This document shows, piece by piece, positions 32,805 through 43,877 of a DNA stretch of 64,000 nt; position 1 is the stretch's first letter; the number at the start of each line of letters is the position of its first letter. The translations under genes were made by a program, and so were the position numbers. A model generated the notes under the pieces. The model was not told the DNA's origin. It made no database searches and saw only the letters and a list, made by a program, of their open reading frames with translations. This DNA is from Rufibacter hautae (GTDB taxonomy: Bacteria > Bacteroidota > Bacteroidia > Cytophagales > Hymenobacteraceae), in contig NZ_VKKY01000003.1 of assembly GCF_008271695.1 (NCBI RefSeq), positions 496,001 to 560,000 of the forward strand, in the 5' to 3' direction.

Positions 32805-33728
32805 TTATCCCTTGCTGGCCAGCAGGTACAGAACCGCCATCCGGATGGCCACGCCATTCTCCACCTGGTCCAGAATGATGGAATGGTGCGAGTCGGCGGC
32901 GTCTGAGGTGAGTTCCACGCCACGGTTGATAGGGCCCGGGTGCATCAACACGATTTCTTTGTCCAACTCATCCAGCATCTTCTTATTGATCCCGAAGTAA
33001 AGAGCGTATTCGCGTAAGGACGGGAACAGTTTGCCCTGTTGGCGCTCCAGCTGGATGCGCAGCACGTTGGCCACATCGCACCATTGCAAGGCCTCGCGCA
33101 CGTTCCAGAAAACCTTCACGCCCAAATCGGCGATGTGTTTGGGCAACAGGGTGGGAGGCCCGCAAACGGCTACCTCGGCCCCCTGCATCTGCAAGGCGAA
33201 AATGTTGGAAAGCGCCACGCGCGAGTGGGTGATATCGCCAATGATGGCTACTTTCTTTCCGCCAACCTCGCCCAATCTCTGCCGGATGGAGAAGGAGTCA
33301 AGCAAGGCTTGCGTGGGGTGCTCGTGCGTGCCGTCGCCGGCGTTCACAATATTGGCCTGGATCTTTCTTGACAAGAAGTGCGGCGCGCCGGGGCTGCTGT
33401 GGCGCATCACAATCATGTCTACCTTCATAGACAGGATGTTGTTCACGGTGTCCAGCAGGGTTTCGCCTTTCTTCACCGAGCTGCCCGAAGCCGAGAAGTT
33501 AATGACATCCGCCGAGAGGCGTTTCTCTGCCAATTCAAACGAAAGCTTGGTGCGGGTGGAGTTCTCAAAAAAGACGTTGGCAATGGTGACATCGCGGAGC
33601 GAAGGCACTTTCTTGATAGGCCGGTTCAGAACCTCCTTAAACTGGTCAGCGGTTTCAAAGATCAACTGAATATCCTGCGGGGTAATCTCTTTGATGCCCA
33701 ACAGGTGCCGGACGCTAAGCTGTTGCAT
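32805..33728 (-). CDS. pyrB: Aspartate carbamoyltransferase, catalytic subunit
   Basis: Condenses carbamoyl phosphate with aspartate in pyrimidine synthesis. 307 residues with the carbamoyl-phosphate loop FFENSTRT, the mobile region around VKKGETLLDTV, HPTQALLD, and a C-terminal HPGPINRGVE. The frame is open to 33773, but MQQLSVRHLLGI at 33728 is the family start and lies within the end of pyrR (14-bp overlap). No regulatory pyrI gene is nearby. It is co-transcribed with pyrR and ends at a strong terminator. Confidence 0.95.
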   Translation of the reverse strand: MQQLSVRHLLGIKEITPQDIQLIFETADQFKEVLNRPIKKVPSLRDVTIANVFFENSTRTKLSFELAEKRLSADVINFSASGSSVKKGETLLDTVNNILSMKVDMIVMRHSSPGAPHFLSRKIQANIVNAGDGTHEHPTQALLDSFSIRQRLGEVGGKKVAIIGDITHSRVALSNIFALQMQGAEVAVCGPPTLLPKHIADLGVKVFWNVREALQWCDVANVLRIQLERQQGKLFPSLREYALYFGINKKMLDELDKEIVLMHPGPINRGVELTSDAADSHHSIILDQVENGVAIRMAVLYLLASKG

Positions 33729-34287
33729 GGGGTTCTTCTTGGTCTGGGGTAAGGGTGAGGAGCCAGATAACATCCTCTGCTGAATCTGGGCCTTGCCAGG
33801 TCACTTCTACCCGCTGCGAGTGCAGAGAGTCTACGCGCTGGCCGGTATAGGTGGCTTCAATGGGTAAATCGCGGGTGTACTGGCGGTCAATGAGTACCAG
33901 CAGTTCTACCTGGGCGGGGCGGCCGTAGGAGATCATGGCGTCCAGGGCGGCCCTTACGGAGCGGCCGGTGTACAGCACATCGTCTACCAGAATCACGCGT
34001 TTGCCTTCCAGCGAGAATTCAACCTTGGTGGCATTGGGCGCCAGCGGGGTGGCGCGGCGGCGGAAGTCATCGCGGTGGAAGGTGATGTCCAGGTAGCCGG
34101 TTTGCACCGTGATGCCCAGGATTTCCTGCAGGGTCTGCTGGAGCCGGTCTGCCACAAAAATGCCGCGCGGCTGCAGGCCCAGGATAACGGAATTGGAAAA
34201 ATCGCGGTGCGTCTCTATGAGCTGGTGCGCCAGGCGCCGGATCATGATCTGAAACAGTGCGTGCGGAACAATGAGGCGTTTGTGCAT
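33715..34287 (-). CDS. pyrR: PyrR: pyrimidine operon regulator / uracil phosphoribosyltransferase
   Basis: 190-residue type I phosphoribosyltransferase fold with the PRPP motif VILVDDVLYTGRSVRAALDA and the PyrR-typical LGLQPRGIFVADRL. In Firmicutes PyrR binds leader mRNA and attenuates pyr transcription. Here the promoter box lies so close to the start that a leader of only about 10 nt is predicted, and pyrB overlaps the 3' end. I see no space for an attenuator in this pair. Enzyme activity or action elsewhere is more likely. Confidence 0.92.
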   Translation of the reverse strand: MHKRLIVPHALFQIMIRRLAHQLIETHRDFSNSVILGLQPRGIFVADRLQQTLQEILGITVQTGYLDITFHRDDFRRRATPLAPNATKVEFSLEGKRVILVDDVLYTGRSVRAALDAMISYGRPAQVELLVLIDRQYTRDLPIEATYTGQRVDSLHSQRVEVTWQGPDSAEDVIWLLTLTPDQEEPHATA

Positions 34288-34366: not shown

Positions 34367-35929
34367 CTAAAAACTAAACTTCTGGAGCGTAAAGATGGTG
34401 TGGCTTTTGCCATTCTCGTTCTTGGCCCGCTCAAAATTATACGCCACAAAGTGACTGCCGTACCATTTCACCAGTCCCTCTGGCGTGTCTGAAGGCTGTT
34501 TCTTTAACTTATTAGTGTCTTGCAGAGCAATTGGTTCTTTGGAGGAGATGGTGCCATTGGCAGTGAAGGACCTGTAATGGAGAGTGCCTGTGTTGAAAGC
34601 GGCCAGTAACACCTCTCCAGACGAGGTCACAGTGGCTTTCACGTTTGGCTGAAGTAAAGCAGTATGCTTGTTGATGGCGTAACTGTTGTCCCAGAGCAGG
34701 TTGCCCTCCCGGTCAAATAGAAGCACCACCGCCGACCTGAAGTGGTAGCTGACATACAGCCCGGAATTGTTTTTGGCGAGGGGTAATCCAGGAGAGCTGG
34801 TCTTGAAGACTCCGTCAATAACGCCTCCTTGGTAATAACTGGTACTTTCAGGCAGGTAGGGTAGTTGGGTGTATTTGGAACTGTATACTTCTCCCACTAC
34901 CACAAAGCCCTGGGGATGGGCAAGAATGGGGTGGAGCAACACCTGGCTGGTGGCTGGTACTGGCTTTTCTTTCTCTATTCTATGGCGGTACTTCCTCTCC
35001 ATCTTCCTGGTTTTTGCGGTATGGTCGTAAGCGAAGAAGTGTTGGAGTTGGCCCAAACTGAAGAACTGGAACTCTCCTGCAAGGTTCGCGCTGAAAAAAC
35101 CTTGGCTATGAAGGTTGTTCTGGAAGCCATAGGTGCCAAAAACGAGCTTGTTTTCTGGTGCGCCTGGGGCAATGAGCACTTGTTGGAGGCTGTTGTTTTT
35201 GCCTGAAGGGAGAAAGCGATTGTCCAGGATTTGTCCTTCAAACGTAAACCGCTTCAACTGAAGTCTGGGGTTGTAAAGAACAGACTCTGTAACGGCTGCC
35301 TCGGTCGCTTTGGTGAAAGGATCAACCTTGAAATCAATCAATTGCTCCTGGAAACCATACACGGCCGGCAGTAACTGGATTTCCTTTTCGGCTGGGTTCA
35401 ACCGCAGTACCATACTGGTTCCGTTTTCTAAGGTGGAGAGCAGTATCATGCCTTGGTTGACAGTCATCTTGGTGACATTCCTTCCTGTCAAGGGCAAGTC
35501 TTCATTAGGAAGGTCATGCAGCGTAAGCCACGTTTTACCAGTGGTGGCGTCTAGCGTGTAGAGAAACAAGGAAGGCGAATCTCTTACCCCAAAAAGAAGA
35601 TAGATGAAATTGCTTTCAGACCCCACCTGCACCAGGCTGGAAAAAATAGGCTGCTCAAATTTCATCTGCCAAACCGTCTGCAGGTCATGGTTGAGTTTGG
35701 TGACCAGAAAATGCTCCACCTGATTTCTCATTCTGGCATTAGTGGTAACTAACAAAAGGGTGCTGTCCTGGAGCGGCTGTAACCACTGGAAGTCTTCACT
35801 AGGAGAACTAGGCATTCTTATTTCAGCACTGGGCTTTGGCGCTTGAAACCAAACTGCCGGAGATGTAAAGCCTATCATGAACAAGCACCAGCAAATGACA
35901 GAGGTGAAAAGGAGGGGGAAAGAAGCCAA
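34367..35929 (-). CDS. Secreted protein of unknown family, paralogue 1 (most diverged)
   Basis: 520 residues with an N-terminal hydrophobic export signal (about 5-30). I do not recognise a named domain. It shares ordered motifs with the three proteins at 37685, 39462 and 41227: ATxxTG near residue 125, PAVYGFQEQLIDFKVD, FGTYGFQNN, VLLHPILAHPQGFVVVGEVY, FDREGNLLWDNSY and a C-terminal VKWYGSHFVAYNFERAK. Recurring short strands hint at a beta-rich, perhaps propeller-like fold (inference). It lacks the KEK-rich linker found after the signal in the others. It ends 79 bp before pyrR. Confidence 0.7.
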   Translation of the reverse strand: MASFPLLFTSVICWCLFMIGFTSPAVWFQAPKPSAEIRMPSSPSEDFQWLQPLQDSTLLLVTTNARMRNQVEHFLVTKLNHDLQTVWQMKFEQPIFSSLVQVGSESNFIYLLFGVRDSPSLFLYTLDATTGKTWLTLHDLPNEDLPLTGRNVTKMTVNQGMILLSTLENGTSMVLRLNPAEKEIQLLPAVYGFQEQLIDFKVDPFTKATEAAVTESVLYNPRLQLKRFTFEGQILDNRFLPSGKNNSLQQVLIAPGAPENKLVFGTYGFQNNLHSQGFFSANLAGEFQFFSLGQLQHFFAYDHTAKTRKMERKYRHRIEKEKPVPATSQVLLHPILAHPQGFVVVGEVYSSKYTQLPYLPESTSYYQGGVIDGVFKTSSPGLPLAKNNSGLYVSYHFRSAVVLLFDREGNLLWDNSYAINKHTALLQPNVKATVTSSGEVLLAAFNTGTLHYRSFTANGTISSKEPIALQDTNKLKKQPSDTPEGLVKWYGSHFVAYNFERAKNENGKSHTIFTLQKFSF

Positions 35930-36495
35930 CTATGATTCAGTTAAAGTTTTGTAATTACTCTTTTAGGTGACTAGTTGCGAAAAGAGGCGCCATAACTCCA
36001 GTACCATGCTACGCTGCCATCTTTCCTTGAAGCCTGCTTCTAATGTACTCAGCTTACCTGTAGAGTTCAAATAATTTTGGCTTCTATATAGTGTTTTGAT
36101 TACATGGATATGCATAAAAACTAACAATACCTTACTCAAACGGCTTGCTCTAAGAGCCAAAGGAGGTGCGGTTAAATTTGCCAAGCAGTTGTAAGCCCAA
36201 GATAGCGGCGCTGGAAGGTCCCAAGCCTCTGTCAATACTTGTGTGAGGGAGTGCGCGCGGAAAAACGGCACGTTTTAACAGGCTGAGTTTAGGAACCATA
36301 TGACCAAGGCTTATTCGCAGCCAGGGACCAAAAGGGGGCATTTTCCCTCTCGCTTGGCCTGCGGTTTCAAAAGCCCTATTTTCAGTGCCTTTGGTCTGGT
36401 TTTGATCAGAATCGACTCAGCAGCAGCAGAGTTCCTGCTTGTTTAATTTAGAAAAGCCCTCTAACCTCAAAGGCTTTTTGCCGTAGTTTTGAGTT
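35930..36495. other. Intergenic region between a paralogue-family gene and nhaA
   Basis: 566 bp without a supported gene. A weak hairpin AAAAGCC/GGCTTTT lies at about 36452-36478 and a TAGTTTTG box at 36484-36491, only 5 nt before the nhaA ATG. Short minus-strand frames here lack start signals and recognisable content. Confidence 0.5.
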
Positions 36496-37683
36496 ATGGC
36501 TAAATTTATTAACCTAAAAGTATTCCCAGATTTCTTCAGATCAGCCTCGGCGGGCGGCATCATTCTCATCATTTCGCTGGTTATTTCCTTGGTCATCGCC
36601 AACTCTGCTTGGGGTGACGCCTTTGCCAGGTTTCTGCAAACAGAACTAGGCTTTGAGACAGCGCAGATTCACCTGAGGTACCCTATCCTTCTCTGGGTGA
36701 ATGACGGACTAATGGCCATTTTCTTTTTGCTGGTGGGGCTGGAGATCAAGCGCGAGTTGTTGGAAGGGGAGCTTTCTTCCCCTAGAAAAGCTGCTTTGCC
36801 GGTCTTTGCCGCAGTGGGCGGCATGGTGGTTCCGGCTGCCATTTATGCACTCGTTAATTCCGGAACGGAAACATTCAGCGGCTGGGGAATTCCTATGGCT
36901 ACTGATATTGCTTTTGCCATTGGCTTGCTTTCCTTGCTGGGCAACCGGGTGCCTACGGGGCTGAAGATCTTTTTAACGGCCTTGGCCATTGTAGATGATT
37001 TAGGTGCCATCGTGGTGATTGCTGTTTTCTATTCCGCGGGCTTGCACGTTACGTACCTTCTCTACGCCGGAGGAATATTTCTGCTCTTGCTGGCTTTCAA
37101 CAGGTTTGGACTAAAGTCACTGGTCTTTTATTTGGTGCCGGGGCTATTCATGTGGTACTTCATTCACCATTCTGGGGTACATGCCACCGTGGCCGGGGTA
37201 TTGACGGCCCTCACCATCCCTACTACCGAAGATGCCCGAGAGTCACCGTTGGAGCACCTGGAGCACGCGCTTACCAAGCCCGTGAATTTTCTCATCATGC
37301 CCATCTTTGCCTTGGTCAATACCAACATCAGCTTTGAGGCAGGGATGCTGGAGGGGTTGCTGAGCCCGTTGGGACTAGGGATCGTTTTGGGGCTGTTTTT
37401 AGGAAAACCCCTGGGAATCTTCCTGTCTAGTTGGGTTGCCGTTAAACTAGGGATGAGCGTGCTGCCCACCGGCGTGAACTGGAAAATGGTGGCTGGCCTG
37501 GGCTTATTGGCCGGGATAGGCTTTACCATGTCCATCTTCATTGCCCTGCTTTCCTTCTCAGAACCGGCTTATCAGACCGGAGCCAAGTTTTCCATTTTAG
37601 TGGCTTCGGTGCTGTCTGGGGTGGTAGGGTATTTCCTGCTGCGGGCAGTTTCTGCCACAGGTCCAGCGATGGAAACGAGGTAG
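36496..37683 (+). CDS. nhaA: Na+/H+ antiporter NhaA
   Basis: A 395-residue inner-membrane antiporter that exports Na+ in exchange for protons, for pH and salt tolerance. About 11-12 hydrophobic helices. Conserved features are GLEIKRELLEGEL, GWGIPMATDIAFAIG, the paired transport aspartates in LTALAIVDDLGAIVVIAVFYS, and KPLGIFLSSWVAVKLG near the end. It lies inside a cluster of four minus-strand paralogues and faces them; its stop is 1 nt from the stop of the next gene, so the convergent transcripts must overlap. Confidence 0.95.
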   Translation: MAKFINLKVFPDFFRSASAGGIILIISLVISLVIANSAWGDAFARFLQTELGFETAQIHLRYPILLWVNDGLMAIFFLLVGLEIKRELLEGELSSPRKAALPVFAAVGGMVVPAAIYALVNSGTETFSGWGIPMATDIAFAIGLLSLLGNRVPTGLKIFLTALAIVDDLGAIVVIAVFYSAGLHVTYLLYAGGIFLLLLAFNRFGLKSLVFYLVPGLFMWYFIHHSGVHATVAGVLTALTIPTTEDARESPLEHLEHALTKPVNFLIMPIFALVNTNISFEAGMLEGLLSPLGLGIVLGLFLGKPLGIFLSSWVAVKLGMSVLPTGVNWKMVAGLGLLAGIGFTMSIFIALLSFSEPAYQTGAKFSILVASVLSGVVGYFLLRAVSATGPAMETR

Positions 37684-37684
37684 G

Positions 37685-39235
37685 CTACTCAAACGTCATG
37701 TTCTGCAGGTAAAAAACCGTGCGGTCCTCACCTTGGGCGGGTTTGATGCGCTGGAAACCATAAGCGACGAAATGGTTTCCGTACCAATGGACGATTCCCT
37801 CTTCATTGCTGGCGTACAGTTTCTCAGAATCAGACTGCAATCTAACCTCTACTTTCTCCTCATCAGAGATAGAAATGTTGGGCCGTAAGGTCTTGTACCT
37901 GACGTATTCTCCCTCGGGGTAGACCAGGGTGAGATTGCCGCCCGGCGAGACGCCCGCCTCCAGAATAGGAACCGGTATTGGGTAGATTTCATTTTTAAGC
38001 CGGAAAGAATTGTCCCACAAAAGGTTGCCTTCATAATCAAAAACACAGACTACGGCGTGGGTGAACCGATATCCTTCAATTACCTCCTGGTCAGTGGATT
38101 GCTCGTCTGGGGCACTGGTGTTGCGGTACAGATGAAAGGCGCCTCTTTTGTACTTGGGGTAATAAATCTCGCCAATTACGGCGTACCCCTGCGGGTGAGG
38201 CAGCACGGTGTGCAAGAGTAAGCGGGGACGCAGCAAAAGCGGTTTTCCCTTGGCCTCTTGGCGGGCGAATTTTGCTTTCATCCGCCGTTCTTTCCTGGGC
38301 GGAAGGTACTCAAAGAAATGCTTCAGCTGGCTGAAATCAAAGTACCTGATGTGGCCAGCCAAGTTGCTGGTAAAAATCCCCTTAGAGAAGGAATAGGAAC
38401 GATGGCCAAAAGAGCCTACCAGAACTTTGCTTAAGGTATCTCCGGGAGTGAGACGGGCACCTTGCAACGTGTTCTCTGAACGGAACTCCATCTGGGGCTG
38501 GACAAAGTACGTGCCTTTCACCTCGCCCATGGCATTGAGACGTTTGATCTGCAACCGGGACCGCGTTCCGTTAGACTCAGCTATGACAAGTTCTACCGCG
38601 TGCGTCAAGGTGTCTACCCTAAACTCGCCTACATTCTCTTCCAGCCCAAGGGTGACAGGCAAGGTCTTTATTTCTTTCTGGCTGGGGTTTAGGTGCAAAA
38701 GGCTCAGGTTTTCTTTCTCCAAGCCCGTCAGGAAAACCTGGCCTGCCAGTGCCTGCATTTTTTTGAGGGTGATACTGGAGGAAGGCAGCGTGTGCTCAGT
38801 AAAGTGAACGGTACCATTGGCATTATTCACCTGATAAAGCAGTGCTTTCCGGTCTTGGAGTGTGTAGAACAGCAGGTAAAGGGTTTTCCGCTCGGCGGCC
38901 AAAAACATGAGCGCCTGGTTTGAGGTATGCCCATGGCTTGTTTGCCAGACTGGCGTAAGCGCTTTGTTGTATTTGGTGAGCACAAACGCATGTTTCCCTA
39001 CCACCGCATGGCGCTTGGTGGAGACCACCAGCAAACCGCTGTCTGGCAAGGCATGTACCAGATGCTTGTCGTCAAAGGAACTGCTTTCCACCTCCACTCT
39101 TTGCGTCTGGGCCGGAGCCGCTGACTTCTCCTTGCCCCTGTTTTTCTGACGCACCTGCGCAGTACAGGTCTGGCCCCAACAGAACAGAAGGAGCGCAAGC
39201 GTTAGTGGATATGTACCGCGAAAAAGGAGTCGCAT
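37685..39235 (-). CDS. Secreted protein of unknown family, paralogue 2
   Basis: 516 residues. Signal peptide with cleavage near CTAQ (about 27), then a basic linker (RQKNRGKEKSAAPAQTQRVEVESSSFDDKH). The body carries the family motifs: LPDSGLLVVSTKRHAVVGKHAFVLTKYN, FRVDTLTHAVELVIAESNGTRSRLQIKR, RLTPGDTLSKVLVGSFGHRS, HTVLPHPQGYAVIGEIYYPKY, FDYEGNLLWDNSF and GIVHWYGNHFVAYGFQRIKPAQG. No lipobox, transmembrane helix or sorting domain is visible. The basic FEYLPPRKERRMKAKFARQEAKG segment at about 275-300 is shared by copies 2-4. Function unknown. Confidence 0.72.
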   Translation of the reverse strand: MRLLFRGTYPLTLALLLFCWGQTCTAQVRQKNRGKEKSAAPAQTQRVEVESSSFDDKHLVHALPDSGLLVVSTKRHAVVGKHAFVLTKYNKALTPVWQTSHGHTSNQALMFLAAERKTLYLLFYTLQDRKALLYQVNNANGTVHFTEHTLPSSSITLKKMQALAGQVFLTGLEKENLSLLHLNPSQKEIKTLPVTLGLEENVGEFRVDTLTHAVELVIAESNGTRSRLQIKRLNAMGEVKGTYFVQPQMEFRSENTLQGARLTPGDTLSKVLVGSFGHRSYSFSKGIFTSNLAGHIRYFDFSQLKHFFEYLPPRKERRMKAKFARQEAKGKPLLLRPRLLLHTVLPHPQGYAVIGEIYYPKYKRGAFHLYRNTSAPDEQSTDQEVIEGYRFTHAVVCVFDYEGNLLWDNSFRLKNEIYPIPVPILEAGVSPGGNLTLVYPEGEYVRYKTLRPNISISDEEKVEVRLQSDSEKLYASNEEGIVHWYGNHFVAYGFQRIKPAQGEDRTVFYLQNMTFE

Positions 39236-39376
39236 GCAAGAAAAGCTAATCTGAAATTAATATAGTTATAAAAACATATATTATCATGATTCAGACCAGA
39301 AATTCAGAGCTCTTTCCAAATTCCCGATTAGGTTTTCCTTTGAGATGACTCTTGCAAGAGCATAAAGGCTCGATAA

Positions 39377-39406
39377 GGCCAAAACAGTACGGGTACTGTT
39401 TTGGCC
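39377..39406. terminator. Hairpin after paralogue 3
   Basis: Stem GGCCAAAACAGTA / TACTGTTTTGGCC with a CGGG loop, running directly into a palindrome copy at 39400-39433. Confidence 0.7.
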
Positions 39407-39433
39407 TCGTTTTTGGGAAAACAGCTTGAAAGC
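39400..39433. repeat. Dispersed palindrome copy
   Basis: TTTTGGCCTCG, TTTTTGGGAAAA, CAGCTTGAAAGCG. Part of a block nearly identical to the one at 41168. Confidence 0.7.
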
Positions 39434-39461
39434 GCAAGCAAGTGCGTCTTAAGAAAGGCCG

Positions 39462-41012
39462 TTAAAAAACCATGTTCTGCAAGTAAAAGACGGTGCGGGC
39501 TGAGCCGTGCTGGGGCTTGATGCGCTGGAACCCGAAAGCCACGAAATTGCCGCCGTACCAATGCACAATGCCTTCATTGCTGCTCGTGACCATTTTCTCT
39601 GTCTTCTCCTGAAGCCGGACCAGCGTTTTCTCTTTGTTGGTGATTGAGAGATTGGGTTTGAGGGTTTTATGCCAGACAAAATCCTTTTCCTGATACACCA
39701 GCGTGATATTGCCCGCCGGTGAAACACCTGCCTTCAGGGTAGGGTCTAAGGTGGAATAAGTCAGGTTTTGGAGTTTGTACGTGTTATCCCACAGCAGTTT
39801 GCCTTCATGGTCAAAGACACAGGCAATGGCGTGGGTGAATTGGTATCCGTCCAATCTGACCTTTCTGTCATTGAAATCAGGGGTTCTTCCGCTTTCCTTT
39901 ACGTACTCGCCTTTAATCATGGAATAATGGGGATAATATACTTCCCCAACCAGGGCAAATCCCTGCGGATGCGGCATAATGGGGTGCAGCAGTACCTGGT
40001 GCTCCATCACCATGGCGCGTTCCTTTTCTGCCTTACGGGCTAATTTGGCTTTCATACGGCGCTCACCGCGGGGAGACAGGTATTCAAAGAAGCGGCTTAG
40101 TTTGTACAGGTCATAGTAAGCGATCTGCCCCGCCAGGGTACTGATGAACAAACCGTTGGCGTATTTGTCGGTGCGGTACCCGTAGGTACCCACCAAAAGC
40201 TTGTTCAGCGTGTCGCCCGGTGTGAGGCGGGCCGGTTGCAAGGTGTTGTTGGCGCGACTATTTAAATCAGGCTGAATGAAATAAGTGCCGGTGACATCAC
40301 CATCTGAATTCATGCGTTTTACCTGTACCTGCGTGCGCTGTCCGTTTGCCGCCGCCGTCACAAATTCCACTGCCTTGGAGAGCGTGTCTACCCTAAACTC
40401 CCCCAGATCTTTCTCTGTCCCGAAAACCGCCGGCAGCAGCTTTATTTCTTCATGCTGCGGGTTTAGGTGCAGCATGTTCAACGTGAATTTGTTTACCCCG
40501 CTCAGGAACACCTGCCCATTCAGCGCAGCCATTTCTTTGAAGAGGATGTCCGGGGAAGGCAGGGTGTGTTCACTGGCCTTTCCCAGGCCCGTGTTCGCAT
40601 TTACCTGGTAGAGGAGGAGCCGCTGGCTTGTAAGGGTAGAGAAAAGAAGGTAAATGGTGCCGCGCTCTGCGGCGATGAACAATAAGCCGGTATTGGGCAA
40701 ATGCTCATACTTGGTTTCCCAAACGGGCTTTAACTGGCGGTCATATTTGGTAAGCACAAAATCGTTCTTGCCAAACCAGGCATTTCGTTTCATAGATACC
40801 AGCAGAAGCGCACTGTCTGGCAGCGCCTGCACGTGGTGCTCATTATCAAAGGAATTGCTGGCCAGTTCTGACCGGTAAGTCTGGGCTGGCGCCGCCGATT
40901 TCTCTTTTTCTTTCTTTCTCTGGCGGGCCTGCGTGGTAAATGAAAGGCTCCAGCAGAGCAGCAAAATAGCCAAAGTCTTCAGAAAAAGGCACAGGGAGAA
41001 GATACGCATCAA
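39462..41012 (-). CDS. Secreted protein of unknown family, paralogue 3
   Basis: 516 residues with the layout of its neighbours: signal peptide ending near FTTQA (about 28), basic linker RQRKKEKEKSAAPAQTYRSE, then the family body (VNANTGLG, LLPAVFGTEKDLGEFRVDTLSKAVEFV, RLTPGDTLNKLLVGTYGYR, LLHPIMPHPQGFALVGEVYYPHY, FDHEGKLLWDNTY). The last 42 residues are identical to paralogue 4 except one position (VTSSNEG against ITSSNEG), although the rest is much more diverged. This points to gene conversion or recent duplication of the 3' end. Function unknown. Confidence 0.72.
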   Translation of the reverse strand: MMRIFSLCLFLKTLAILLLCWSLSFTTQARQRKKEKEKSAAPAQTYRSELASNSFDNEHHVQALPDSALLLVSMKRNAWFGKNDFVLTKYDRQLKPVWETKYEHLPNTGLLFIAAERGTIYLLFSTLTSQRLLLYQVNANTGLGKASEHTLPSPDILFKEMAALNGQVFLSGVNKFTLNMLHLNPQHEEIKLLPAVFGTEKDLGEFRVDTLSKAVEFVTAAANGQRTQVQVKRMNSDGDVTGTYFIQPDLNSRANNTLQPARLTPGDTLNKLLVGTYGYRTDKYANGLFISTLAGQIAYYDLYKLSRFFEYLSPRGERRMKAKLARKAEKERAMVMEHQVLLHPIMPHPQGFALVGEVYYPHYSMIKGEYVKESGRTPDFNDRKVRLDGYQFTHAIACVFDHEGKLLWDNTYKLQNLTYSTLDPTLKAGVSPAGNITLVYQEKDFVWHKTLKPNLSITNKEKTLVRLQEKTEKMVTSSNEGIVHWYGGNFVAFGFQRIKPQHGSARTVFYLQNMVF

Positions 41013-41167
41013 AAGGGGAGGTTAATCAAGTCTTAATATAGAAATAAAGTTATATAAAGACTTGATCCGATCTGAAATCTTCCTTGTGATTGGAAAATCA
41101 ACTCCCTGGGAGTTCTGGTTTGAGGTTTTTTTGGAGAACTAGGTCTTCCCTAAAGTAATCCTTGTTT

Positions 41168-41200
41168 TGCCCTCGTTTTTGGGAAAACAGCTTGAAAGCG
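41168..41200. repeat. Dispersed palindrome copy
   Basis: TGCCCTCG, TTTTTGGGAAAA, CAGCTTGAAAGCG, as at 39400. After paralogue 4. Confidence 0.7.
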
Positions 41201-41226
41201 CAAGAAGTAGGTCTTAAGAAAGGCCC

Positions 41227-42777
41227 TTAAAAAACCATGTTCTGCAGGTAAAAGACGGTGCGGGCCGAGCCGTGCTGGGGCTTGATGCGCTGGAAACCGA
41301 AGGCCACAAAATTGCCGCCGTACCAATGCACAATGCCTTCGTTGCTGCTGGTGATCCTTTTCTCGGTTTCCTCCTGCAGCCGCACCTCTACTTTCTCTTC
41401 GTCAGAAACGGAGACGTTGGGTTTTACGGTCTTGTACCAGATGTACTCTTCGTCTGGGTAAGTCAGGGCAATGTTTCCCTCGGGGGTGACACCGGCTTCT
41501 ACGGTAGGGGCCAGTTGCGGATAGGTCTCGTTCTTGAGTTTGTAGGAGTTGTCCCAAAGCAGCTTGCCCTCACGGTCAAAAACGCAGACAATGGCGTGGG
41601 TAAACCGGTAGCCGTCAAAATTGCTCCTGGACTGCCGGATGTCTGGGTACCGGCCCGTGATGTTGGTGTACTGGTTCAGGCTGTTGTTGCGGTACTGTGG
41701 ATAATAGATCTCGCCCACCACAGCATACCCCTGCGGATGGGGCATGATGGGGTGCAGAAACATGCGATACCGGAGAACCGGCGGTTTCCCTTTGGCCTCC
41801 TGCCGGGCGAATTTGGCTTTCATGCGGCGCTGGGCCCTGGGCCCCATGTACTCAAAGAAATGATCCAGCTTGCTGAAATCATAGTACGTGACGTTGCCTA
41901 TTAGGTCGCTGCTGTACAAACCCTTGGCAAATACCGATGTGCGGAAACCATAGGTGCCCAGCAGCACCTTGGTGAGGGTGTCGCCGGGGGTAAGGCGGCC
42001 GGCCTGCAGGGTGTTGTCATTGCGCTCGTCCAGTTCGGGCTGAAGAAAGTACGTACCAATGACGTCGCCCTTGGTATTTATGCGTTTGGCCTGCACCCGC
42101 GAGCGCCTGCCGTTTGACTCGGCCACCACAAACTCCACCGCGTGGGTAAGCGTGTCTACCCTGAACTCACCCAAATCATCTTCCATCCCAAAGACGGCGG
42201 GCAGCAGCTTTATCTCCTCCACGCTGGGGTCCAGGTGCAACATGTTCAGGTTGTCGCGGTCCAGGCCGTTGAGGAAAACCTGTCCGTCCAGGGTAGCCAT
42301 TTCTCTGATGGTGATGTAAGAGGCGGGCAGCGTATGTTCGCTAAAGGTGGAGACGCCCGTGGCGGTGTTCACCTTGTGCAGCATCAGCTTTTTGTTGTTG
42401 GGCGTGGAGAACAGCAGGAACACCAATTTGCGGTCGGCGGCTACCTCCAGCAGCTCATGGTTGGTCTTGTGCTCATACTTGGTCTGCCAGATCTGTTTCA
42501 GCTCGCGGTTGTATTTGGTGAGCACAAAGTCATCCTTGCTGAACCAGCTGTTCCGTTTGAAGGAGACCACCAGCAGGCTGGTGTCTGGGAGCGTGTGCAC
42601 AGAATGCTCCTCGTCATAAGAATCGCTTTCTATCTCTGTCCGGTAGGTTTGGGCCGGTGGTTCTGGTTTCTGCTTGTCTTTGTCTTTCTTCTGGCGGGCC
42701 TGCGCACAGAAAACCCAGCCCCAGCAGAGCAGGAGAAAAAGGTATCGCCAGGAAGTGCTTCTGATGAGTGGGAACAT
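41227..42777 (-). CDS. Secreted protein of unknown family, paralogue 4
   Basis: 516 residues. Signal peptide ending near FCAQA (about 27), then the basic linker RQKKDKDKQKPEPPAQTYRTE and the family body: LPDTSLLVVSFKRNSWFSKDDFVLTKYNRELKQIWQTKYEH, VNTATGVS, LLPAVFGMEDDLGEFRVDTLTHAVEFVVAESNGRRSR, RLTPGDTLTKVLLGTYGFR, FLHPIMPHPQGYAVVGEIYYPQY, FDREGKLLWDNSY. Probably the 5'-most gene of the minus-strand run of copies 4, 3 and 2; gaps of about 215-225 bp suggest separate promoters. Function unknown. Confidence 0.72.
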   Translation of the reverse strand: MFPLIRSTSWRYLFLLLCWGWVFCAQARQKKDKDKQKPEPPAQTYRTEIESDSYDEEHSVHTLPDTSLLVVSFKRNSWFSKDDFVLTKYNRELKQIWQTKYEHKTNHELLEVAADRKLVFLLFSTPNNKKLMLHKVNTATGVSTFSEHTLPASYITIREMATLDGQVFLNGLDRDNLNMLHLDPSVEEIKLLPAVFGMEDDLGEFRVDTLTHAVEFVVAESNGRRSRVQAKRINTKGDVIGTYFLQPELDERNDNTLQAGRLTPGDTLTKVLLGTYGFRTSVFAKGLYSSDLIGNVTYYDFSKLDHFFEYMGPRAQRRMKAKFARQEAKGKPPVLRYRMFLHPIMPHPQGYAVVGEIYYPQYRNNSLNQYTNITGRYPDIRQSRSNFDGYRFTHAIVCVFDREGKLLWDNSYKLKNETYPQLAPTVEAGVTPEGNIALTYPDEEYIWYKTVKPNVSVSDEEKVEVRLQEETEKRITSSNEGIVHWYGGNFVAFGFQRIKPQHGSARTVFYLQNMVF

Positions 42778-42846: not shown

Positions 42847-43251
42847 TTACTGGCCCATGGCCAACAAAAGGTCAAACTCTTCCGGCGTTAAGGGCATCAC
42901 AGACAACCGGGACTGCCGCAGCAGCGCGATGTTCTGGAGACGCTCTTCTTTTTTGATCTGGTCCAGGGTTACTGGTTTAGCAAACGCGGTCTCCGGCACC
43001 AGGGTTACCGCAACCCATTGGGTCTCTGGGGTGGTAGGATCCTGGAAGGCTTCCTGGCTTACTTTGGCCACGCCCACAATAGATTTCTCAGAGACGCTGT
43101 GGTAGTACAGGACCAGATCGTTCTGCCGCATTTGCTGGAGGTTGTTGCGGGCCTGGAAGTTTCTAACCCCGTCCCAGGTGGTTTGTTTGTCGCGTTGCAG
43201 GTCAGACCAGGCGTATTTTTCAGGTTCAGATTTAACGAGCCAGTAATTCAT
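42847..43251 (-). CDS. EVE domain protein
   Basis: 134-residue single EVE domain, a PUA-like fold that binds modified bases in DNA or RNA. Diagnostic N-terminus MNYWLVKSEPEKYAWSDL, then TTWDGVRNFQARNNLQQMRQNDLVLYYHS and IVGVAKVSQEAFQDPT. The frame is open to 43413, but the EVE family starts at MNYWLVKSEPE (43251). Closely follows a small exported protein gene on the same strand. No restriction or defence gene is nearby. Confidence 0.92.
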   Translation of the reverse strand: MNYWLVKSEPEKYAWSDLQRDKQTTWDGVRNFQARNNLQQMRQNDLVLYYHSVSEKSIVGVAKVSQEAFQDPTTPETQWVAVTLVPETAFAKPVTLDQIKKEERLQNIALLRQSRLSVMPLTPEEFDLLLAMGQ

Positions 43252-43321
43252 AGGTAAGCTAAAAACAAGTGGGTTTTCCCCAGAGAGGAGGCCACTTGCC
43301 ATGGTTAAAGGTAAAAGAATT

Positions 43322-43717
43322 CTATTCTTGGTCTTGCTTGCGCCGAAGTTTGATCTGGTCTGCGGTGACAGAGATGATTTCCAGTTCTTCCGGGGCGTGT
43401 TTGGGATTGTCAAAGGTCACCAGCAGGCGGTCTTTGGCTTTGGCTTCCCACTTGCCGGGCTGCTCTTCCAGACCATCGGTAGGGGCGATGCCGTAGCGGA
43501 TGAACGTGCCGTCTGCCTGGATCATAAACCCGGTGCGCCCGCGCGAGGGCGGAAAGTCAAAGGTGTTGGGCCGGTAGGTGCGCACATCGGCAGAGTCTTC
43601 TTCATAGGAGTTGAGCCAGGTAAGCCCGTACACCGAGGCCGGTAAATCGGCTTTGGCGCCGCATCGGGCGCCCATGAGCACCAGGGCCAGCAGGCTCAGC
43701 AAAAAGAAGTGTTTCAT
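43322..43717 (-). CDS. Small exported protein of unknown function
   Basis: 131 residues from ATG 43717 (the open frame continues to 43765, but MKHFFLLSLLALVLMG is a typical signal start). The signal is followed by ARCGAK; the Cys could be lipidated, but the preceding Arg makes a poor lipobox. The body is a small beta-rich domain (SVYGLTWLNSYEED, GFMIQADGTFIRYG, PGKWEAKAKDRLLVTFDN, LEIISVTADQIKLRRK) like lipocalin-type META-like or copper-resistance-like domains. This is a weak resemblance. Probably co-transcribed with the EVE gene. Confidence 0.65.
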   Translation of the reverse strand: MKHFFLLSLLALVLMGARCGAKADLPASVYGLTWLNSYEEDSADVRTYRPNTFDFPPSRGRTGFMIQADGTFIRYGIAPTDGLEEQPGKWEAKAKDRLLVTFDNPKHAPEELEIISVTADQIKLRRKQDQE

Positions 43718-43877
43718 ACGTCTGCGGGTTGCCTCAACTTTGCGTCCATGACAATTCAGGCACAATATAAAAAATAGTCCTGAAAGTAGTCCTGAGTTCT
43801 GAGTCTTGAGTCCTGAGTTGGGGAAAAATGTTCATCGGAAAAAGAGCCAATGTCAGCCTGCAGAGTCTTTGTTTCTT

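What the first reader, a model, noticed from the sequence alone, without database searches (positions are those of the whole stretch)
34367..42777. Four-member paralogous family of secreted ~520-residue proteins of unknown function
Genes at 34367, 37685, 39462 and 41227 share signal peptides, length and ordered motifs (LTPGDTL, HPQGYAVVGEIYYP, EGNLLWDNS, HWYGxxFVAxxFQRIK) but no domain I can name. A tandem, same-strand, diverging expansion suggests a role under changing selection, for example surface or periplasmic recognition. Copies 2-4 share a KEK-rich linker and a basic RRMKAKFAR segment; copy 1 lacks the linker.
Basis: partly seen in the sequence, partly recalled or inferred. Interest (0 to 1): 0.65.

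Follow-up and report, generated by a model that had tools for sequence, protein, structure and literature searches.

The report
Tandem copies of secreted beta-propeller protein
Four related genes in a Rufibacter-type bacterium make copies of an unnamed exported protein, predicted to be an eight-bladed propeller, that most of the sampled relatives carry once; it looks like an ordinary conserved binding or scaffolding protein that was duplicated locally, not a rapidly diversifying recognition system.

Summary
The four minus-strand genes are real and are the genome's only members. Copies 2-4 are 55-61% identical; copy 1 is 31-34% identical to them and lies beyond an opposite-strand nhaA. Pfam, NCBIfam, PADLOC and PDB sequence searches name none of them. 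The family matches in 53 of 59 sampled genomes, once in 42 of those 53; two of 16 Rufibacter genomes have four copies. Models of copy 4 (pLDDT 86.5) and copy 1 (84.6) are beta-propellers, eight-bladed by my count. Matches are generic propellers (IFT-A, SCAP, BamB, EMC1) at about 10% identity. Conservation peaks on blades 5-6, beside a basic helix and a long hairpin, and on blade 8. In two families the gene follows an EVE-domain gene and often precedes pyrR-pyrB. Selection is purifying: dN/dS 0.06-0.19 between ortholog pairs, no window with dN>=dS. Copies 3 and 4 share a near-identical 3' tract, probably gene conversion. Best reading: an exported propeller scaffold, duplicated locally; family unnamed, partner unknown.

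The parts
34367..35929 (-). copy 1 (520 aa, TTG start): the most divergent paralog, next to pyrR; predicted beta-propeller
   Evidence: groups with the second copy of genome G001, locus L080, support 100/100; pLDDT 84.6, pTM 0.84
36496..37683 (+). nhaA (Na+/H+ antiporter) lying between copy 1 and copy 2; not a family member
   Evidence: PF06965, E=4e-149
37685..39235 (-). copy 2 (516 aa)
   Evidence: ortholog of L070 copy 4
39462..41012 (-). copy 3 (515-516 aa)
   Evidence: ortholog of L070 copy 3
41227..42777 (-). copy 4 (516 aa), lowest dN/dS of the copies compared, next to the EVE gene; predicted beta-propeller, eight blades by my strand count
   Evidence: (pLDDT 86.5, pTM 0.82)
39397..39585 (-). 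3' end of copy 3 plus about 65 bases downstream, nearly identical to the 3' end of copy 4 (about 41163-41350); probable gene-conversion tract, edges approximate
41794..41859 (-). copy 4 residues 307-328: basic helical insertion between blades 5 and 6
41578..41730 (-). copy 4 residues 350-400: long blade-6 hairpin (GExYYP...GYRFTHA) with a low-confidence tip at 366-383
42847..43257 (-). EVE-domain gene immediately upstream (69 bp gap): conserved neighbour
   Evidence: (PF01878, E=2e-44)
33715..34287 (-). pyrR-like phosphoribosyltransferase, downstream neighbour
   Evidence: PF00156; the name pyrR is from neighbourhood and recall
32805..33773 (-). pyrB-like aspartate/ornithine carbamoyltransferase, downstream neighbour
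   Evidence: PF02729, PF00185; the name pyrB is from neighbourhood and recall

Best explanation
Each gene encodes a Sec-exported protein, most likely periplasmic or released. Its mature part is predicted to be one eight-bladed beta-propeller, closed by pairing the first strand with the last three. It probably works as a non-enzymatic binding or scaffolding module. The partner site would lie on the face of blades 5-6 that carries a conserved basic helix (residues 307-328 of copy 4) and a long conserved blade-6 hairpin (350-400). The ancestral state is one gene per genome. Rufibacter duplicated it repeatedly in place, most likely by unequal crossing-over between neighbouring copies, with occasional gene conversion. 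Shown here: homology, export-type N-termini (by a simple hydrophobicity script), confident propeller models, mostly single-copy background, expansion within the genus, purifying selection and a near-identical 3' tract. Inferred: periplasmic location, absence of catalysis, blade count, the interaction face, conversion and crossing-over. Unknown: the partner.
For: Two models, with the divergent copy 1 giving the same fold. Best structural matches: IFT-A Z 19.6 (rmsd 5.3, 329 aligned), SCAP 18.7 (4.0, 336) and BamB 17.9 (4.5, 317) for copy 4; IFT-A 19.5 (4.9, 328) and BamB 17.8 (3.9, 311) for copy 1. The best weak Pfam match of copy 1 is also a propeller model (E=0.0057, far under its cut-off). 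Conservation concentrates in blades 5, 6 and 8 and the helix; E356, G274, G286, G404 and W485 are invariant in 44 rows. A hydrophobic N-terminal core is found in 116 of 131 members of at least 440 aa. One copy in 21 of 21 genomes of the family's other genera and in 8 of 16 Rufibacter genomes. All 28 Rufibacter rows lie on one side of a branch, 100/100. dN/dS 0.06-0.19 between ortholog-type pairs. 3' tract of copies 3 and 4: 0.942 identical against 0.671 overall, reached in 0 of 300 shuffles.
Against: Catalysis is not excluded: lyases and peptidases head or enter the Foldseek list, and quinoprotein and heme-d1 enzymes are in the VIA-align list (Z 16.2 and 14.8). Generic propeller similarity at about 10% identity does not identify function. 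Blade number and faces come from my reading of DSSP strands; no coordinates were available. Fifteen of 131 members do not pass the hydrophobic-core cut-off (some open frames may have misplaced starts). No expression, localisation or phenotype data were found. Conserved linkage to EVE, pyrR and pyrB genes is not explained by a periplasmic scaffold.
Confidence: 0.5

Rival explanations
1. It is a BamB-like accessory of outer-membrane protein assembly: an eight-bladed periplasmic propeller that docks on BamA or a chaperone in Cytophagales and some other Bacteroidia.
For: BamB chains of several entries are among the best structural matches of both models, Z 15.8-17.9. [quoted passage not shown]
Against: Unrelated propellers (IFT-A, SCAP, EMC1, designed Scone) match as well or better. 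No PQQ-type family among Pfam matches at E<=0.1 in 44 members. Lipobox-like sequence in only 5 of 131 members, while BamB is a lipoprotein. The family matches in 106 of 396 class genomes, so it is not general in the class.
Confidence: 0.1
2. It is an exported enzyme, for example a polysaccharide lyase, peptidase-type or redox propeller, whose active site lies under the blade 5-6 cap.
For: Foldseek's top two rows are the lyases LOR107 and Uly1. Quinoprotein and heme-d1 enzymes appear in the VIA-align list. Invariant E356 and W485 and near-invariant R506, D409 and N410 could be catalytic.
Against: Foldseek TM-scores to the lyases are 0.34-0.39 with rmsd above 10. No profile hit to an enzyme family near its cut-off. 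Catalytic residues were not compared, and neighbours were not systematically annotated.
Confidence: 0.15
3. One reading: a diversifying surface-recognition family under changing selection.
For: Copy number varies from 1 to 4 among 16 Rufibacter genomes. Downstream copies evolve faster. The blade-6 hairpin tip is the least conserved long stretch within Rufibacter, and the highest dN windows in copies 2 and 3 lie at the N-terminus or near that hairpin.
Against: dN/dS well below 1 in the genes and windows tested; one copy in 42 of 53 genomes with the family; conserved position in the window's family.
Confidence: 0.08
4. It functions with its operon neighbours: EVE protein and pyrR-pyrB form one pathway with it, for instance nucleotide or modified-base sensing coupled to the envelope.
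For: EVE gene within 700 bp upstream in 36 of 37 loci of the window's family and 8 of 8 of family f19; pyrR within 1.5 kb downstream in 24 of 37 and 7 of 8; EVE and the propeller gene overlap by four bases in 7 loci.
Against: EVE is the neighbour at 2 of 20 loci in the other sampled families of the order and 0 of 20 loci outside the order. Nine genomes of those order families hold both genes, but apart (searches compared). EVE carries no export signal that I saw, and this protein does. PADLOC gives no hit.
Confidence: 0.07

Closest known systems
BamB (beta-propeller lipoprotein of the E. coli BAM complex)
   Same: structural match Z 15.8-17.9 over 303-327 residues; BamB has eight blades (recalled), as I count here; export
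   Different: 10-12% identity; no lipobox in most members; no PQQ-repeat profile hit; extra basic helix and long blade-6 hairpin; BamA binding untested
BamI (six-bladed propeller subunit of the Bacteroidota BAM complex, PMC12578637, passages read)
   Same: Bacteroidota envelope propeller of unclear role
   Different: BamI is reported as six-bladed with an Ig-like N-terminal domain and a surface-lipoprotein signal; this family is eight-bladed by my count, has no separate N-terminal domain in the models and mostly no lipobox
WD40-type propellers (IFT-A subunits, SCAP; Cdc4 and Fbw7 for copy 4 only)
   Same: among the best Z values, velcro-type closure
   Different: eukaryotic; no WD40-repeat family reached in 44 members beyond one WDR35/TULP-type match at E=0.059
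Designed propellers Scone-E and Cake8
   Same: fold match (Scone-E Z 17.2 with copy 4 and 17.9 with copy 1; Cake8 16.3 with copy 1); eight-bladed by recall
   Different: artificial; no functional meaning

Membership tests
beta-propeller fold (eight blades) | radial four-stranded blades with ring closure | tested here: met
   predicted models only: structural matches; the count of eight is my reading of the strand list
BamB | eight-bladed periplasmic propeller | tested here: inconclusive
   propeller fold by prediction; blade count is mine; periplasmic location inferred from the N-terminus only
BamB | lipoprotein signal with lipobox cysteine | tested here: not met
   lipobox-like sequence in 5 of 131 members, none of them a window copy; regular expression, not a trained predictor
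BamB | PQQ-type repeat profiles | tested here: not met
   no PQQ family among the 9 Pfam families matched at E<=0.1 in 44 members
BamB | binds a BamA POTRA domain | not testable with these tools
   needs pull-down or structure
WD40 repeat family | WD40 profile hit | tested here: not met
   only one WDR35/TULP-type match (E=0.059) in one member of 44
Type IX secretion substrates | C-terminal sorting domain profile | tested here: not met
   no such model among the 9 Pfam and 6 NCBIfam families matched at E<=0.1 in 44 members
polysaccharide lyase propellers (PL24, Uly1) | close structural match including catalytic site | tested here: inconclusive
   Foldseek ranks 1-2 but TM 0.35-0.39; catalytic residues not compared
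known anti-phage defence families | PADLOC profile hit | tested here: not met
   none at E<=0.01 for the four copies and the EVE gene
diversifying (positively selected) family | dN/dS above 1 in genes or windows | tested here: not met
   (whole genes and 50-codon windows); site models not run

The most novel reading that the evidence does not exclude
The family is a so far unnamed envelope scaffold of Cytophagales, possibly filling the place of BamB or of another outer-membrane assembly or secretion accessory. The basic helix and blade-6 hairpin would dock onto a partner, and the extra Rufibacter copies would serve different client sets.
Probability: 0.1. Interest if true: 0.6.

Novelty: new member of a known kind. 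Interest (0 to 1): 0.3.

Why it matters
An exported-looking protein family present in 53 of 59 sampled genomes of the order has no name in the Pfam and NCBIfam copies searched. Giving it a predicted fold, a conserved face and a gene neighbourhood makes it testable. If it proved to be an envelope-assembly factor, it would bear on whether any Bacteroidota has a BamB equivalent, which one recent paper calls unclear. As a case of gene-family evolution it is ordinary: local duplication, probable gene conversion and purifying selection.

Tried and rejected
Profile searches: Pfam and NCBIfam on the four copies at E<=1 gave two Pfam hits for copy 1 (best E 0.0057, a propeller model far under its cut-off) and one NCBIfam hit for copy 4 (E 0.17). 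PHROGs, run on copies 1 and 4 only, gave one hit at E 0.13. For 44 members the best E-values were 0.0057 (Pfam) and 0.013 (NCBIfam), each family in one or two members. PDB sequence search with copy 4 and with the profile found nothing at E<=1. Ten more divergent relatives from other Bacteroidia also had no Pfam hit at E<=0.01, so the family could not be named through the wider superfamily.

Structure-library names: Foldseek's top rows (lyases, sortilin) were rejected as identification because TM was 0.3-0.4 with rmsd mostly above 10. The lyases are not among the 50 rows shown by VIA-align, which excludes nothing. VIA-align rows are close in Z among many unrelated propellers.

Type IX secretion co-occurrence: SprA_N is in 380 of 392 class genomes, so it cannot discriminate.

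Diversifying selection: rejected for whole genes and 50-codon windows. dS between paralogs is high or undefined, so paralog dN/dS is not used. YN00 failed for three family comparisons (copy 4 against L071 and L073, copy 1 against L080) and seven flanking-gene comparisons, so NG86 is quoted. YN00 where it ran for copy 2 was higher (0.196 and 0.24).

An exact 336-base match printed was an artefact of overlapping flanks and is not used; the direct alignment replaces it. Caveats on gene conversion: the coding differences inside the tract are synonymous (the last 40 residues are identical), so constraint could contribute, and codon shuffles ignore that. Eighteen pairs were examined, so values of 1-3 of 300 are weak. 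For conversion speak the shared non-coding bases downstream and the high dS of the last window of copy 3 against its ortholog (2.66; 0.37-1.47 in its other windows), though one unrelated window of another comparison also reaches 2.65.

Distribution: the phylum sample (8 of 148) adds little beyond the class, since all 28 rows listed are of the same class. It gave a lower rate than the class sample (106 of 396) from a different draw. One search scored at most three candidates per genome in the rows shown, so its copy numbers are lower bounds; many of its positives are weak and partial, including a short second match in G025.

Literature: EVE domain + Bacteroidetes + pyrB (0 papers); Cytophagales + eight-bladed + propeller (0); Hymenobacter + beta-propeller + secreted (1, listing only, looks unrelated); Rufibacter + genome (30 papers, 15 listed, listing only); BamA + Bacteroidota + beta-propeller + periplasm (3 listed, passages of one read); EVE domain + operon + bacteria (8 listed, passages of one read). 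None named this family in what I saw. Plasmid collection: no tblastn match at E<=1e-5.

Rows dropped: loci L034-L039 and L043 are the same contigs as G-handle loci and were left out of the neighbour counts, the signal-peptide count and the tree. Remote loci L159-L168 were left out. The tree used 59 rows: the window and all fetched Rufibacter and same-family G-handle loci, plus seven loci of my choice from elsewhere in the order.
Full report
What is there. The four ORFs exist as described, on the minus strand. Pairwise protein identity is 60.7% (copies 3 and 4), 58.5% (2 and 4), 55.2% (2 and 3) and 31-34% for copy 1 with the rest. A whole-genome search with copy 4 finds these four and no others. 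Copy 1 is separated from the rest by nhaA on the other strand. I call the genus Rufibacter because contigs of genomes marked 'same genus' have the same lengths as records titled Rufibacter; the window's own record is not named.

Who has it. A profile of the four copies matches in 53 of 59 genomes sampled, the window's own included: 37 of 37 of its family and 16 of 22 others of the order. Of these 53, 42 have one match. Of 16 genomes of the genus, 8 have one copy, 6 have two and 2 have four; 21 of 21 genomes of the other genera in the family have one. With the 44-row profile, 106 of 396 class genomes match at E <= 0.001, many weakly, and 8 of 148 in a phylum draw, all of the same class. One genome-contig scan gave 36 loci, mainly Cytophagales and other Bacteroidota, many of them MAGs; one, L059, is titled alphaproteobacterial but has the same neighbourhood as L055 and may be mis-binned.

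No name. Among 44 members the best Pfam and NCBIfam E-values are 0.0057 and 0.013, scattered over unrelated families. The profile finds no PDB chain. Ten more divergent relatives are equally nameless.

Fold. AlphaFold2 with 44 rows gave copy 4 at pLDDT 86.5 and pTM 0.82 and copy 1 at 84.6 and 0.84. The strand order reads as eight four-stranded blades, the first strand (42-50) completing the last blade formed by 473-515. This count is mine, from the DSSP list. It agrees with several of the best structural neighbours, which I recall as eight-bladed: SCAP, Cdc4, Fbw7, BamB, EMC1, Scone-E and Cake8. Quinoproteins that I recall as seven-bladed also appear, lower in Z. Mean conservation across the family is 0.56-0.76 for the blade 6 strands, 0.48-0.69 for blade 5, about 0.65 for blade 8 strands b and c, 0.50 for the basic helix 307-328, and 0.31-0.57 for blades 1-4. 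By propeller topology (recalled) a d-a connection and a b-c connection lie on the same face. The helix (between 5d and 6a) and the blade-6 hairpin (6b-6c) would then be neighbours there and form the likeliest binding site. This is inference.

Export. 116 of 131 members of at least 440 aa have a strongly hydrophobic N-terminal core; 5 of 131 have a lipobox-like motif, three of them among the 116. This was a simple script, not a trained predictor. No type IX sorting-domain model matched.

Neighbourhood. An EVE-domain gene (PF01878, E=2e-44) lies directly upstream of copy 4. EVE lies within 700 bp upstream in 36 of 37 loci of the window's family (in the other, L087, it is a little further) and 8 of 8 loci of family f19. 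pyrR lies within 1.5 kb downstream in 24 of 37 and 7 of 8. EVE and this gene overlap by four bases in seven loci. The link is lineage-bound: EVE is adjacent at 2 of 20 loci in the other sampled families of the order, 6 of 28 named loci and 0 of 20 loci outside the order. EVE itself is in 50 of 59 genomes. In a paper on EVE domains (PMC7641849, passages only) the words propeller and aspartate carbamoyltransferase do not occur. In another group of MAG loci the gene sits among a DnaK-like gene (by eye) and large secreted proteins. I take the EVE-pyr context as old synteny or an operon, not as proof of a shared pathway.

History. In a maximum-likelihood tree of 59 rows all 28 Rufibacter rows lie on one side of a branch, support 100/100, so the expansion appears to be within the genus. 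Copy 1 pairs with the second copy of G001 (100/100; that partner row is flagged as long and odd in composition). Copies 4, 3 and 2 have separate orthologs in the other four-copy genome, G014. Tandem pairs in L044, L045 and L111 form their own first-copy and second-copy groups (100/99 and 99/90, the latter with the single copy of L042), an older, separate duplication.

Selection. Against G014, NG86 dN/dS is 0.057 (copy 4), 0.104 (copy 3) and 0.146 (copy 2); seven flanking genes give 0.015-0.123. Against L071 and L073 the copies give 0.10-0.19; copy 1 against L080's second copy gives 0.196 at a saturated dS of 3.4. No window of 50 codons reaches dN >= dS in five comparisons of 19 overlapping windows each (copy 1 was not in these). 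So the copies are under purifying selection, the extra ones less strictly.

Gene conversion. Copies 3 and 4 are about 67% identical at the DNA level, but their best 120-base window, at the 3' end, reaches 94%, and near-identity runs on for roughly 65 bases past the stop (0 of 300 codon shuffles reach it). Of 18 within-genome pairs examined, four others also exceed most shuffles: copies 1-2 of L070 (0 of 300, not at the 3' end), 1-4 of L070 (3), 1-2 of L071 (1) and 1-2 of L082 (1). The other 13 do not (41 of 300 or more).

Reading. The best account is an exported, non-enzymatic propeller scaffold of the Bacteroidota envelope, kept as one gene in most sampled relatives and multiplied locally in Rufibacter. 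A BamB-like role is attractive because one paper says the presence of BamB in Bacteroidota is unclear (PMC12578637, passages only), but two defining features were tested and not met, so I do not file it as BamB.

Noticed in passing
window 39376-39407: Perfect hairpin (14 pairs counted) between copies 3 and 2, terminator-like on the plus strand; the scan as a whole is near its shuffle expectation (17 found, mean 13.5).
   Followed up: no
window 43322-43765: Small 147-aa protein upstream of the EVE gene, exported-looking by eye, no Pfam hit, its cluster in 33 loci of those compared, dN/dS up to 0.285.
   Followed up: partly
L120 (G049:C5): A family member in another genome of the order is split by an in-frame TGA into two ORFs of 249 and 252 aa, so the gene can be lost.
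   Followed up: no
L055, L057, L058, L059, L060, L061, L065: In these MAG loci the gene lies near a secreted protein of about 840 aa and, in six of the seven, one of about 540 aa; the tails of two examples (L058) resemble type IX sorting domains by eye.
   Followed up: partly
L159-L168: A wider nameless superfamily: proteins of 525-652 aa in other Bacteroidia score 45-63 bits against the family profile; eight of them had no Pfam hit.
   Followed up: partly
window 36496-37683: nhaA lies between propeller genes and pyrR in 6 of 16 Rufibacter loci, the window included (cluster k27); in the window it splits the family cluster.
   Followed up: no
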